9,327 nucleotides of DNA, taken from contig USTO01000026.1 in NCBI GenBank assembly GCA_900557675.1, forward strand, positions 1-9,327, read 5' to 3'. Of this stretch, positions 1,058 through 9,327 are shown piece after piece. The notes beneath the pieces are model-generated. The model saw only the letters and a program-made list of their open reading frames with translations. It was not told the DNA's origin and did not search any database. This stretch comes from an uncultured Mollicutes bacterium. GTDB taxonomy: Bacteria; Bacillota_I; Bacilli_A; RF39; UBA660. Both the position numbers and the translations under genes were made by a program. The first letter of the stretch is position 1. Every line of letters begins with the position of its first letter.

Positions 1058-1077
1058 ACCCTATCGGGGGTCAGAAT
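1058..1077. repeat. Hairpin-forming intergenic repeat, copy 1
   Basis: The plus strand reads ACCCTATCGGGGGTCAGAAT. A second copy at 8922-8941 differs at only 3 of 20 positions. CCC and GGG around a four-base TATC loop can form a small hairpin. This copy lies about 30 bases after the stop of the accessory ATPase gene and about 30 bases upstream of the rpsB -35 box. On the minus strand it is followed by a run of six T, so this copy could also act as a weak terminator for the ATPase gene. The second copy has no such T run, so termination does not explain the conserved sequence. Confidence 0.7.
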
Positions 1078-1107: not shown

Positions 1108-2448
1108 CTAATACTTCACCTGTTTCATATATCTTTTTAACAAAAATCCCATAAAATATGGAAATGTATAAAACTTACCATTAAATCCAATATTCTTATT
1201 ACAAAGTTTTATACCATATTTAATATCCTTGTACTTATTGCTATTGGTAAGATTATTTAATGATACAGCCCGATTATCATTAGCCTTTACTTCTATAGGC
1301 ACAAGTGAATTTATATCTCTAATAAAGAAATCCATTTCAACAGTACCCTTCTCACTCTTATAAAAGTACAAATTATACCCCTGTTTTACTAACATATCCG
1401 CAACAACATTTTCATATACCGCACCTTTGTAAGTATTAAAATTTTGATTTTTCCGTAAATCTTCCTGAGCCTCCTCATCAAGAGAGCCAATAAGAAGACC
1501 AGTATCTCCAAAATATATTCTATAATTATTAGGATTATAATTACCTTTCAAAGGAAGGCAAACATCATCCAAAGCATAACTTATATTAACAATTCCAGCT
1601 CTATCAAGCCAGTTCAAAACTCCAATATACTCTCTGTTTCTTGCCCCATCCTGTATTTTTGTAATTTGAAACTTTTTATTTTCATTACCAAGAAATACAG
1701 GAATATTTTTATATACCGTAAGAATTTTACTTTGGTCAAGTCCTCCAGCATACTTAGTAATATCTTCTTCATAATCAAGTAAAATCTGTTGTTGCATTTT
1801 TAATATTCCACTATAATTCTTATTTTCTATAAATTTACTTACTATTGCTGGCATACCACCAATAACCATATATTCTTTAAAATTCTCAAGCATTACATCA
1901 TACATAGTTTTAGATAACGGCCTAAGTTCCACCATACATTCTAACATCTCATTAATTACTTCATCTTTATAACCCTTAGCCCATAAAAATTCCTCAAAAT
2001 CCATAGAACGAAGAGTGTAATCTTCTTTATTTCCTACACTGTTTGATTCTATTTTTTTGTAATTAATCCCCATAAGTGAGCCTGAACATATTACATCATA
2101 CCTTCCATCCTCTCTAAATGCTTTCAAAGATGTAGCTACACTTGGACAGTCTTGCATCTCATCAAAAAACATCAAAGTTTCATTAGGTATTATTTCTAGC
2201 TCCGGACGTCGTAATGTTATTTCCTTAATCACTTCATCAACATTAAATGACTTATCAAAAATAGATTTAAACTCAGGATTTAATACAAAATTTATTTCAA
2301 TAAAAACCTTGTAATTATTTTCTCCAAAATACCTAATTGCATTAGTTTTTCCTATTTGCCTAGCTCCCTTTACAATCAGTGGCAATCTATCGGAATTTTG
2401 TTTCCATTCTATCAAATAATCATCAATCTTTCTTTTTAAGCGTTTCAT
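1108..2448 (-). CDS. AAA+ ATPase with C-terminal DUF4143 domain
   Basis: A 446-residue protein of the AAA_14/DUF4143 family, widespread accessory ATPases of poorly known role that are often mobile between strains. The Walker A motif is GARQIGKT at residues 28-35 and Walker B is LMFFDE at 92-97. CSGS at 121-124 occupies the sensor-1 position. The C-terminal part carries a nuclease-like pattern: Glu346 in KGAVYEN, Asp373 in VEMDFF and EVK at 386-388 in PIEVKAND, as in PD-(D/E)XK folds. Whether it cuts DNA is unknown. The start at 2448 is preferred over the upstream ATG at 2496 for two reasons: AGGAGG lies 7 bases before 2448, and the upstream ATG falls inside the -35 box of the gene's own promoter. 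It sits alone, with no partner gene, between rpsB and a small membrane protein. Confidence 0.9.
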   Translation of the reverse strand: MKRLKRKIDDYLIEWKQNSDRLPLIVKGARQIGKTNAIRYFGENNYKVFIEINFVLNPEFKSIFDKSFNVDEVIKEITLRRPELEIIPNETLMFFDEMQDCPSVATSLKAFREDGRYDVICSGSLMGINYKKIESNSVGNKEDYTLRSMDFEEFLWAKGYKDEVINEMLECMVELRPLSKTMYDVMLENFKEYMVIGGMPAIVSKFIENKNYSGILKMQQQILLDYEEDITKYAGGLDQSKILTVYKNIPVFLGNENKKFQITKIQDGARNREYIGVLNWLDRAGIVNISYALDDVCLPLKGNYNPNNYRIYFGDTGLLIGSLDEEAQEDLRKNQNFNTYKGAVYENVVADMLVKQGYNLYFYKSEKGTVEMDFFIRDINSLVPIEVKANDNRAVSLNNLTNSNKYKDIKYGIKLCNKNIGFNGKFYTFPYFMGFLLKRYMKQVKY

Positions 2449-2467
2449 AAATATTCCTCCTAAACTA

Positions 2468-2496
2468 ATTTTATCACATTTTTCCGTATATTTCAA
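2468..2496 (-). promoter_or_regulatory. Promoter of the AAA+/DUF4143 ATPase gene
   Basis: On the minus strand, TTGAAA (2496-2491), a 17-base spacer and TAAAAT (2473-2468) form a sigma-A-type promoter. The expected start near 2461 leaves a leader of about a dozen bases that holds the AGGAGG site. This makes the accessory gene an independent transcription unit. Confidence 0.65.
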
Positions 2497-7046: not shown

Positions 7047-8164
7047 TAAACCCTTCTATTATTCTCAATACTAACTCTTGCAACAAGACCAAGAGCAAAC
7101 AATAAAGATAAACAATAACTACCCCCATAACTAAGAAACGGTAAAGGAACACCAGTTAAAGGAATAACTCCCATAACTCCCCCCAAATTAATAACAATAT
7201 GCAATAAAAGATACATAAATACCCCAAAAGCAAGTAACGAATTCCTAAGATTCTTAGCATTCCTTGATATCCTAAATATCCTATATAAAAGAACAAAGAA
7301 TAAAATAAGTACTAACGTTCCCACTAAGAAACCCCATTCCTCAACAATAATAGGGAAAATAAAATCCGTATAAGACTCAGGTAAATACAAATACTTCTGC
7401 GTACTCTTACCAATACCCTGTCCCGTTAAACTACCATTCTTAAAAGCAATAAAACTATTACAAAGCTGATATCCCGTATCATCACGATACCTATCACAAG
7501 GATCCTTAAAGTTAAACCTCTCCAGTTGATAATCCTGTAAAATACTACCCTTCGTAGCTACCATAACAAGAGAAATTAACAAAACAACACTAATAATAAG
7601 CTTAGTAACAATACTCCGCTCTCCCTTTTTAACCGGAACACTATAAAACATACACATAACAATAGCAAAAATAATAAACGCTGTTCCCACATCCGGTTGA
7701 ATAGCAACAAGAATAGTAATAATCGCTCCCACAATAAGAGGAAGTATTAACGTAAACTTATTACTAAGCCGACCCTTGTATTTATCAAAATAACAAGAAA
7801 GAAAAATAATCAGGACAATCTTAGCAATCTCACTAGGCTGAATTTTTATTGGACCAATCTCATACCAACTAGCAGCATTATTAGCAACATAACCAGATAT
7901 AGTAAGACCAGCAAGAGCTGTAATAACAACAATAACTAGTGGCCAAGATAACTTCCTATATACCTTCGTAGGAATAAGTATCGTAAAGAAAAATATAAAT
8001 ACTCCCCCTACTAAAAATATCGCCTGTTTAAAAAAATAATAATAAGGACTCTTTGCATACCGCATATAACTCTCCATCGAGGAGGCACTAAGTATCATAA
8101 TAAGTCCAAAAACAAATAAAACCACACTCACAATAATAAGAGGTTTATCTATTTTCTTAAGCAC
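7046..8164 (-). CDS. ftsW: SEDS-family peptidoglycan polymerase FtsW
   Basis: A membrane glycosyltransferase that polymerises lipid II with a partner class B penicillin-binding protein, most likely at the septum. The protein has 372 residues with about ten hydrophobic helices. Family motifs: ASWYEIGPIKIQPSEIAK at 98-115, QPDVGTA at 156-162, GYQLCNSFIAFKNGSLTGQG at 231-250, GKSTQKYLYLPESYTDFIFP at 252-271 and NLGGVMGVIPLTGVPLPFLS at 327-346 followed by YGGS. Asp267 in YTDFIF corresponds to the essential SEDS aspartate. The QKYLYLPE wording favours FtsW over RodA, but SpoVE or RodA cannot be excluded. The start is GTG at 8164 with TAGGTGA 6 bases before it; the nearby ATG at 8184 is out of frame. 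It is transcribed alone, with no murG or other division gene beside it. Confidence 0.93.
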   Translation of the reverse strand: MLKKIDKPLIIVSVVLFVFGLIMILSASSMESYMRYAKSPYYYFFKQAIFLVGGVFIFFFTILIPTKVYRKLSWPLVIVVITALAGLTISGYVANNAASWYEIGPIKIQPSEIAKIVLIIFLSCYFDKYKGRLSNKFTLILPLIVGAIITILVAIQPDVGTAFIIFAIVMCMFYSVPVKKGERSIVTKLIISVVLLISLVMVATKGSILQDYQLERFNFKDPCDRYRDDTGYQLCNSFIAFKNGSLTGQGIGKSTQKYLYLPESYTDFIFPIIVEEWGFLVGTLVLILFFVLLYRIFRISRNAKNLRNSLLAFGVFMYLLLHIVINLGGVMGVIPLTGVPLPFLSYGGSYCLSLLFALGLVARVSIENNRRV

Positions 8165-8190
8165 TCTCTATCACCTACTAACATAATTCT

Positions 8191-8199
8191 ATAATACCA
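8191..8199 (-). promoter_or_regulatory. Extended -10 promoter of ftsW
   Basis: On the minus strand TGGTATTAT (8199-8191) is an extended -10 element, TG-n-TATTAT. There is no good -35 (TTTATT at 17 bases), which extended -10 promoters tolerate. The start would be near 8184, with a leader of about 20 bases. Confidence 0.5.
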
Positions 8200-8292
8200 C
8201 AGAAAAAAAAATAAATAAATACTTTCCCCCAAAATAAATACAATTCCCCCTTTTTTCCCCAATTATGTAAAGAAAAAACTCCACTTTTACAT

Positions 8293-8328
8293 ATAAAGAA
8301 AAATCCCTCATAAGGGGACCTTCTTTAT
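8293..8328 (-). terminator. Terminator of the rpsP-khpA operon
   Basis: ATAAAGAA (8293-8300) and TTCTTTAT (8321-8328) form an 8-bp outer stem, with an inner TCCCT/AGGGGA stem. On the minus strand the descending arm contains ATTTTTCTTTATAT. It starts one base after the khpA stop. Confidence 0.7.
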
Positions 8329-8577
8329 CTAATAAGAATCAATATTAATATTAACTTTCTTATCCATATTAAGAGAAGCTGCAGCCTGAACAATAGTTCT
8401 TATACTACCAATGATTTTACCATCCTTACCAATAACCCTTCCAATATCATCCTTAGATATCAAAACTTCTAGTAAAATAATATCATCATCACTACTCTCA
8501 AATTCCTTAACTGTCACTGTATCTGGATCCTTAACCATTCTCGTAATAATATACTCTGTAAGTTTAACCAAATCCAT
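8329..8577 (-). CDS. khpA: KH-domain RNA-binding protein KhpA (YlqC family)
   Basis: A small single-KH-domain protein that in Bacillota pairs with KhpB/EloR and binds RNA, influencing cell elongation and division. The protein has 82 residues, usual for the family. The N-terminus reads MDLVKLTEYIITRMVKDPDT, then a strand region with VLISKDDIGRVIGKDGKIIG at about residues 37-56, holding the GKDG loop (GxxG) that contacts RNA, and SIRTIVQAAASLNMDKKVNI after it. It starts one base after the rpsP stop codon, so it is co-translated with S16, the normal Bacillota arrangement. The usual next genes rimM and trmD are absent; a terminator follows instead. Confidence 0.94.
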   Translation of the reverse strand: MDLVKLTEYIITRMVKDPDTVTVKEFESSDDDIILLEVLISKDDIGRVIGKDGKIIGSIRTIVQAAASLNMDKKVNINIDSY

Positions 8578-8578
8578 A

Positions 8579-8851
8579 CTATTTACCTAACTTACTGTTA
8601 TGAAATGCTTCCATAACTCCAGCTTTACTTAAAATATTTCTTACAGTATCAGTAGGAATAGCTCCATTATTAAGCCATTTAATTGCTTTTTCAGTATCAA
8701 TCTTAATGTCACTAGGGTTAGTAATAGGATTGTAGTATCCTAAATTTTCAATAATTTTTCCATCTCTTGGACTTCTTGAATCTGCAACTACTACACGGTA
8801 AAATGGTGCCTTCTTAGCACCCATTCTCTTAAGTCTAATCTTAACTGCCAT
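8579..8851 (-). CDS. rpsP: 30S ribosomal protein S16
   Basis: An early-assembling small-subunit protein. The protein has 90 residues with the full signature: [60 protein letters not shown] and [24 protein letters not shown] lies 6-7 bases before the ATG. A near-consensus promoter immediately upstream (8875-8904) drives rpsP-khpA, leaving a leader of only about 17 bases. In many Bacillota ffh precedes rpsP; here an accessory surface protein gene and the 8922-8941 repeat take that place. Confidence 0.98.
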
Positions 8852-8874: not shown

Positions 8875-8904
8875 ATTATAACATTAAAAATATATCTTTG
8901 TCAA
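8875..8904 (-). promoter_or_regulatory. Strong promoter of rpsP-khpA
   Basis: On the minus strand a perfect TTGACA (8904-8899), an 18-base spacer and a perfect TATAAT (8880-8875). It starts 17 bases downstream of the 8922-8941 repeat, so the repeat is upstream of the promoter and not part of the rpsP message. Confidence 0.85.
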
Positions 8905-8921: not shown

Positions 8922-8941
8922 GCCCTATTGGGGGTAAGAAT
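8922..8941. repeat. Hairpin-forming intergenic repeat, copy 2
   Basis: The plus strand reads GCCCTATTGGGGGTAAGAAT, 17 of 20 bases matching the copy at 1058-1077, in the same orientation. CCC and GGG flank a TATT loop. As at copy 1, it lies 18-30 bases after the stop of a minus-strand accessory gene and just upstream of a ribosomal protein promoter. Confidence 0.7.
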
Positions 8942-8959: not shown

Positions 8960-9327
8960 TTAAGATAAGATGTAAGGATCTGTTTCTGTACCTGTACCAC
9001 CTGTAATAGATGTAGAAGAGGTTAGGTAGAAGACTGGGCGCACCGAATAAGCATCGTTGACACCACTGAAGCGGACGTAGCCGGACGAGTAGACGATGAA
9101 GGCAAAGGCGGAGTTGCCCAAATACGGCGACATTAACCACTGATAAGTATTTGAAATATAGAGCCAATCCTTGTTACTGCATTTTCCATAATATTTCCAT
9201 AACTGTGTTCCTGTTGCACATACATTTCCTGCTGCATATCCATAATCACTTGGATACATAAGTCCAACCATCCCTTCCCAATAAAGTGGTCTATCCGTAT
9301 TATATCTTAACGTACCTCTTTCATATC
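8960..9327 (-). CDS. C-terminal part of a surface protein with a DUF6273-like (C-type-lectin/FGE-like) domain; 5' end beyond window
   Basis: The frame is open to the right edge, so the gene is cut by the window; 121 residues are visible. The first visible residues are YERGTLRYNTDRPLYWEGMV, followed by GLMYPSDYGYAAGNVCATGT, two Cys (in NVC and GKCSNKDW) that may form a disulfide, and WLMSPY. A variable-looking stretch leads to SVRPVFYL, and the end is ITGGTGTETDPYIL. This layout matches large surface or pilin-like proteins of uncultured gut Bacillota whose C-terminal domain resembles DUF6273 and formylglycine-generating-enzyme or lectin folds. That match is from memory. The visible part says nothing about the N-terminus. 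The segment 9020-9130 has base composition unlike the rest of the gene (see its own entry). No ribosome site can be judged. Confidence 0.75.
   Translation of the reverse strand, partial: YERGTLRYNTDRPLYWEGMVGLMYPSDYGYAAGNVCATGTQLWKYYGKCSNKDWLYISNTYQWLMSPYLGNSAFAFIVYSSGYVRFSGVNDAYSVRPVFYLTSSTSITGGTGTETDPYILS
9020..9130 (-). other. Candidate variable region (A-poor, GC-rich block) in the surface protein gene
   Basis: These 37 codons, from the SPY after WLM to YLT, have 28 third positions that are G or C, 22 of them C. The codons on both sides mostly end in A or T. The coding strand holds only 15 A in 111 bases; in the central 60 bases (9061-9120) it is 6 A and 36 G+C. Neighbouring parts of the same gene have roughly 30% A. 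Loss of A with kept NNC codons, ending just after a conserved VRPV motif, is the pattern left when template adenines are randomised in diversity-generating retroelements. It could also be an imported cassette. Confidence 0.5.

What the first reader, a model, noticed from the sequence alone, without database searches (positions are those of the whole stretch)
9020..9130. Adenine-depleted, GC-rich block in a lectin-like surface domain: possible DGR variable region
Inside an AT-rich gene, a sharply bounded 111-bp segment has 15 A on the coding strand and 28 of 37 codons ending in G or C, mostly NNC. It encodes the stretch between WLMSPY and VRPVFYL, where C-type-lectin-like targets of diversity-generating retroelements carry their variable residues. 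DGRs replace template adenines, so a variable region becomes poor in A and keeps NNC codons derived from AAC. No reverse transcriptase or template repeat lies in the window, so the system would have to act from elsewhere, or variation would come from recombination among gene copies. If real, the target sits beside a core ribosomal operon.
Basis: partly seen in the sequence, partly recalled or inferred. Interest (0 to 1): 0.85.

Follow-up and report, generated by a model that had tools for sequence, protein, structure and literature searches.

The report
Targeted-hypermutation region in gut-bacterial protein
The odd GC-rich stretch looks like the part of a bacterial surface-type protein that a reverse-transcriptase system rewrites at chosen positions; the engine is not in this fragment, but relatives carry it and seem to aim it at many such genes at once.

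Summary
The block is the C-terminal variable region (VR, about 9127-9032, minus strand) of a truncated DUF6273-like gene. Relatives from gut Bacilli MAGs carry DGR cassettes (target, template repeat TR, Avd, RT). Over 20 VRs compared with their own genome's TR, 1222 of 1382 non-A bases match but only 311 of 718 A bases. Among the 47 closest proteins, the 14 most variable of 31 VR columns are exactly the 14 Asn codons of foreign TRs; one pair differs at all 14, at 0 of 92 positions outside and at 0 fixed VR columns. All 14 window codons there end in C or T. The window's own RT and TR are untested because no genome is held. In relative G030 (46 DUF6273 matches), 10 VRs fit the TR beside the only detected RT, and 19 fit an orphan second TR that I predicted from the VRs and then found as one exact hit. 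The kind is known; the size of the dispersed target set is the interesting part.

The parts
8960..9325 (-). 3' part of a DUF6273-like target gene; the 5' part runs off the window
   Evidence: Open frame; Pfam DUF6273 E 2.2e-4, 21.6 bits, below the 23.5 cut-off; relatives
9032..9127 (-). Variable region (VR) in the register of relatives' template repeats
   Evidence: 14 hypervariable codons start (high end) at 9124, 9115, 9109, 9106, 9097, 9091, 9079, 9073, 9070, 9067, 9064, 9058, 9055, 9049; all end in C/T
9032..9046 (-). A-poor 3' end of the VR (TCG GTG CGC CCA GTC), the place where an IMH-like homing site would be expected
   Evidence: Sequence; position equals the 3' end of TR/VR identity in relatives; function inferred, not tested
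8875..8904 (-). 12/12 sigma-70-like promoter between the target's stop codon and rpsP
   Evidence: Consensus scan; 3 promoter-like sites in the region against a shuffle mean of 2.1, so only the perfect score is notable
8579..8851 (-). rpsP (ribosomal protein S16), neighbour only, not part of the system
   Evidence: ORF; name recognised by eye

Best explanation
9127-9032 is the variable region of a DUF6273 (C-type-lectin-like) protein that a DGR diversifies. A template RNA with AAC/AAT codons at 14 positions is copied by an error-prone RT-Avd complex that puts random bases opposite A; the cDNA then replaces the VR, homing at its A-poor 3' end. Because template third bases and fixed codons are C/G-rich, the VR ends up GC-rich and A-poor. 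Shown in relatives: cassettes, TR/VR pairs with A-biased mismatch, several to many VRs per TR. Shown in the window's own protein subfamily: variation concentrated at the template-Asn columns. Inferred: that the window's genome holds, or recently held, RT and TR elsewhere; that the protein is anchored at the cell surface; that it binds varied ligands.
For: TR/VR pairs in 12 of the 14 genomes with a TR that I compared (the other two were not compared): over 20 VRs, 1222/1382 non-A and 311/718 A bases match; sites were pre-selected at 72% or more non-A match. 14 of 14 template-Asn columns are the top-entropy columns among 31 in 48 sequences, and again in a second set of 120 full-length proteins. 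P0014/P0027 differ at 14/14 Asn columns, 0/92 outside, 0 fixed VR columns; P0180/P0183 (575 aa) at 10 Asn columns, 0 fixed, 4 elsewhere. Residues that NNY codons cannot encode (E,K,Q,M,W): 22/656 at Asn columns against 150/657 at variable columns outside, 23/1669 against 307/1673. Third base C/T in 720/781 codons at these columns against 2627/5339 outside the VR in 56 loci; 14/14 against 44/92 in the window. Window VR against the G034 TR: 48/68 non-A, 12/34 A, in frame; next place in the window 32/68. Against G030 TR2 less one codon: 43/63; 200 codon-shuffled controls at most 38, mean 30.1. RT motifs GNxTSQ and YMDD; best solved relative 8ub7_A, E 3.1e-18, next 5.9e-7 (that 8ub7 is the BPP-1 DGR RT is recalled). 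Avd by NF033474 E 7.6e-14 and 3.9e-10, below cut-off.
Against: No RT or TR in the window, and the window's genome is not held. Only 7 of 14 foreign TRs place the window VR in the homologous register, and none of three more does. 14 of 56 relatives' VRs show weak or no GC signature, so decay is common in this family. A few residues at Asn columns are not NNY-encodable (22/656). In G378 (28 matches) no TR fitting its DUF6273 copies was found in the stretches fetched. In the genus of G125, nearest by rpsP-ftsW DNA, 7 of 11 genomes have no RVT_1 match.
Confidence: 0.92

Rival explanations
1. Fossil VR: the gene was a DGR target, but this genome has lost the RT and TR and the block is now static.
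For: No RVT_1 match in 7 of the 14 genomes; weak VR signature in 14 of 56 loci; the homologue in L001 has VR GC3 0.31 and Glu residues in the VR; G030's RT and avd frames are split.
Against: In the window all 14 codons are still NNY and GC3 is 28/37; its close subfamily shows fresh-looking VR differences.
Confidence: 0.25
2. Cassette exchange or gene conversion among the many paralogues creates the variation, without an RT.
For: Relatives hold many copies (24, 28 and 46 DUF6273 matches in G034, G378 and G030).
Against: Exchange would carry whole segments. Here VRs differ at template-Asn columns while the interleaved codons stay fixed, and TRs with A at these places exist outside the target genes.
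Confidence: 0.03
3. Chance or laterally acquired GC-rich codon usage under ordinary diversifying selection.
For: GC 0.559 in an AT-rich gene.
Against: The block lies inside one continuous domain and recurs at the same place in 42 of 56 loci, with different residues at the same columns.
Confidence: 0.01

Closest known systems
DGRs with DUF6273 targets in gut phages: tentaclins (PMC10743442) and Faecalibacterium prophages (PMC11792537); passages read
   Same: DUF6273 domain with the VR at its C-terminal end, TR/VR/RT logic, one TR serving two targets
   Different: Here the relatives' targets are chromosomal MAG genes with an N-terminal hydrophobic helix, in many dispersed copies; no match to the window protein in 50,697 phage records
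Treponema denticola DGR with remote targets (PMC4891356, passages read)
   Same: One RT and one TR, several dispersed cell-envelope targets with a C-terminal VR
   Different: 2 to 7 targets per isolate there; 16 (G034, one TR) and 29 (G030, two TRs) VRs at 80% or more non-A match here
Cyanobacterial and Thiohalocapsa DGRs with remote targets (PMC7517822, PMC10907252, passages read)
   Same: Remote C-type-lectin targets; action in trans proposed
   Different: 76 remote targets over 21 genomes; nine loci with 15 targets in one genome; regulatory or defence proteins rather than DUF6273 proteins
DUF6273 domain of the Thomasclavelia ramosa IgA peptidase (9qa6; PMC12402451, passages read)
   Different: An N-terminal domain of a peptidase; no DGR link in the passages seen

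Membership tests
Diversity-generating retroelement (target/VR) | VR differs from a TR in the same genome mainly at template A | tested here: met
   Met in relatives: 1222/1382 non-A against 311/718 A bases over 20 VRs. For the window's own genome: not testable, none held
Diversity-generating retroelement (target/VR) | DGR-type reverse transcriptase in the genome | not testable with these tools
   Window genome not held. In relatives: RVT_1 in 35 of 40 genomes, which includes group II types; 11 of 30 fetched RT loci fit the GxxxSQ/YMDD motif by my pattern
Diversity-generating retroelement (target/VR) | Window VR fits a template at non-A positions | tested here: inconclusive
   Only foreign TRs available: 48/68 (G034) and 43/63 (G030 TR2), above controls; 7 of 14 TRs in register, 0 of 3 more
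Diversity-generating retroelement (target/VR) | Hypervariation confined to template-A codons in close relatives | tested here: met
Diversity-generating retroelement (target/VR) | VR at the C-terminal end of the target | tested here: met
   VR ends 24 codons before the stop codon
Diversity-generating retroelement (target/VR) | Accessory Avd gene beside the RT | tested here: inconclusive
   In two relative cassettes, NF033474 51.9 and 40 bits (cut-off 80), PF22296 34.5 and 29.3 bits (cut-off 40), over nearly the whole model length
Diversity-generating retroelement (target/VR) | IMH site and hairpin or cruciform just downstream | not tested
   Only the A-poor VR end was noted
DUF6273 (PF19789) | Score over the curated cut-off | tested here: inconclusive
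C-type lectin fold | C-type-lectin topology shown by a structure match | tested here: inconclusive

The most novel reading that the evidence does not exclude
The window is one node of a genome-wide hypermutation network in small-genome gut Bacilli: one RT serves two or more separate templates, including orphan ones parked beside ribosomal genes, and rewrites dozens of dispersed surface proteins in trans. Surveys that look only next to the RT would miss most of it.
Probability: 0.45. Interest if true: 0.78.

Novelty: new member of a known kind. Interest (0 to 1): 0.6.

Why it matters
It shows that a DGR target can be recognised from a single VR without its engine. In a relative, a hidden template was predicted from VR sequences alone and then found. 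PMC8144416 (passages read) states that its survey would not detect remote targets, so DGR repertoires of gut bacteria are probably undercounted. If active, these bacteria re-randomise many exposed binding proteins in genomes of about 1.0-1.3 Mb, which could bear on contacts with host, mucus, phage and antibodies (inference).

Tried and rejected
Window genome: not held. Nearest genomes by rpsP-ftsW DNA: top pieces 67-74% identical, shorter ones up to 78%, in 288 genomes drawn from one order. No closer one appeared in 11 genomes of the genus of G125. With the target itself, no close relative appeared in 338 genomes of the family of G315 (DNA), in 3 and 7 genomes of two genera, or in 385 of the order with protein P0014 at E 1e-25 (7 matched, best 50-52% identity). 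Viral contigs: 8 stretches matched, none encodes a relative; exact VR-derived pattern 0. Phage records: no match.

G378: 28 DUF6273 matches, but the one TR found there fits another target and none of the 20 stretches fetched at 62% or more of non-A bases (not every match was fetched). No engine for its DUF6273 copies was found.

A pilin-type N terminus was looked for in 72 complete ORFs and found in none. The first structure model (L201, 9 sequences) was too poor to use (mean pLDDT 39.8). Among the 50 rows I saw no other chain named as a C-type lectin; that list covers mainly model residues 44-170, so it excludes nothing. Rfam: no match at gathering threshold. NCBIfam: the RTs hit only group II and antiviral RT models far below cut-off.

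In print: full-text searches for DGR with RF39, Tenericutes, Mollicutes, and with Bacilli + gut + surface protein gave 0, 1 (a liver-disease review, listing only), 0 and 0 papers. The library holds few subscription journals and no preprints.

Full report
OBSERVATION. The block is as described: 15 A, 28 of 37 codons ending in G/C, GC 0.559 against 0.353 in the rest of the gene piece, and the joint-highest GC of any 111-nt window in the 9.3 kb. A-poverty alone is less special (26 of 18434 positions are as low). The gene piece (8960-9325, minus strand) is the end of a DUF6273-like protein (just under Pfam's cut-off) that runs off the window.

RELATIVES. In the 56 that I aligned, VR GC3 averages 0.55 against 0.21 elsewhere; 14 of 56 are weak. 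Codons at the 14 variable columns end in C/T in 720 of 781 cases, against 2627 of 5339 outside the VR.

TEMPLATES. RVT_1 is found in 35 of 40 relative genomes, but this includes group II types; of 30 RT loci fetched, 11 fit the GxxxSQ/YMDD motif by my pattern. Asn-rich repeats such as PNSSNSNNVFNVNNNGNVNNNNANNTNN appear in loci held from 15 of these 40 genomes. I compared 12 of these genomes with their own VRs: 20 VRs, pre-selected at 72% or more non-A match, give 1222 of 1382 non-A and 311 of 718 A bases matched; 11 of 20 match at 90% or more of non-A bases, and A matches range from 31 to 58%. L030 and L132 hold cassettes with target, MutS_I-like genes, TR, Avd and RT (model scores mostly below cut-off). 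The best solved relative of the G034 RT is 8ub7_A (recalled as the BPP-1 DGR enzyme).

THE WINDOW. Against the TR of G034 the window VR matches 48 of 68 non-A and 12 of 34 A bases, in frame at the expected place; the next place in the window scores 32. 7 of 14 TRs place it in the homologous register; the other 7, and three more, do not. TRs of other species differ at silent sites, so this is suggestive, not proof.

SUBFAMILY TEST. I aligned the window with the 47 best short proteins (of 120 listed, 224 found), 59-76% identical to it. The 14 Asn columns were taken from foreign TRs; the 14 highest-entropy columns among 68-98 are exactly these. P0014 and P0027 differ at all 14, at 0 of 92 positions outside and at 0 fixed VR columns. 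In a second set, the 120 proteins listed of 1361 found, the same 14 columns come out. Of 73 same-length pairs under 12% different, 11 differ at 8 or more Asn columns, with 0-5 changes at fixed VR columns and 4-31 elsewhere; 4 differ at 2, and 58 at none. Residues that NNY codons cannot make are rare at these columns but not absent (22/656 and 23/1669). All 14 window codons end in C/T, against 44 of 92 outside the VR.

SCALE. G034: 24 DUF6273 matches; in the stretches fetched, 19 VRs match its TR at 60% or more of 63 non-A bases and 16 at 80% or more. G030: 46 matches; 10 VRs match TR1 at 80% or more (reversed-TR control best 31, none at 60%). A second VR group ending VVWPVVYL fits TR1 poorly. 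From its consensus (10 of 15 sequences) I wrote a 31-base template with AAC/AAT at the variable codons. The genome held one hit, exact, with none for the backward control. It lies on contig C44 near genes that look like rplK, rplA and further ribosomal proteins (names by eye), after a stretch that by eye resembles a degenerate MutS-like gene; no RT-like ORF of 100 aa or more shows in the 9 kb read, and the genome's only RVT_1 match is on C4 beside TR1. 19 VRs match TR2 at 81% or more of non-A bases, 12 of them at 95% or more. G030's RT and avd frames are split in this MAG, by assembly error or decay, and a missing second RT is not excluded. The window VR also fits TR2 less one codon: 43 of 63 non-A; 200 codon-shuffled controls reach at most 38.

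AGAINST. In G378 (28 matches) no fitting TR was found. 7 of 14 genomes have no RVT_1 match. The L001 homologue has a weak GC signature and Glu in its VR. So loss and decay occur in this family, and the window's own engine is unproven.

VERDICT. The window holds a DGR variable region (0.92). Whether the engine is still present and active in this genome is untested.

Noticed in passing
window 1059-1077 and 8923-8941, both +: A 19-bp intergenic repeat CCCTATYGGGGGTMAGAAT occurs twice; 0 expected in 200 shuffles. No exact match in 264 other loci and no Rfam family in the window.
   Followed up: partly
window 8904-8875, -: A perfect TTGACA-18-TATAAT promoter-like site with TG before the second hexamer lies between the target's stop codon and rpsP.
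   Followed up: no
G030:C44:143-173 (L301, TR from about 139): Orphan template repeat beside ribosomal protein genes with no RT gene seen near it; predicted from the VRs of the same genome and then found exactly.
   Followed up: yes
L138 about 7238-8614: The avd-like and RT frames of G030 are each split between reading frames: assembly error or decay.
   Followed up: no
L001 880-1236: The best species-genome homologue has a VR with weak GC signature (GC3 0.31) and Glu residues: looks like a decayed variable region.
   Followed up: no
L238 (G378:C6): A TR/VR pair of another type beside an RT: the VR matches 63/63 non-A and 12/36 A bases, in a different target ending LGLAPAFCL.
   Followed up: no
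window 1108-2496, -: An AAA_14/DUF4143 ATPase gene between the rpsB end and the xse genes.
   Followed up: no
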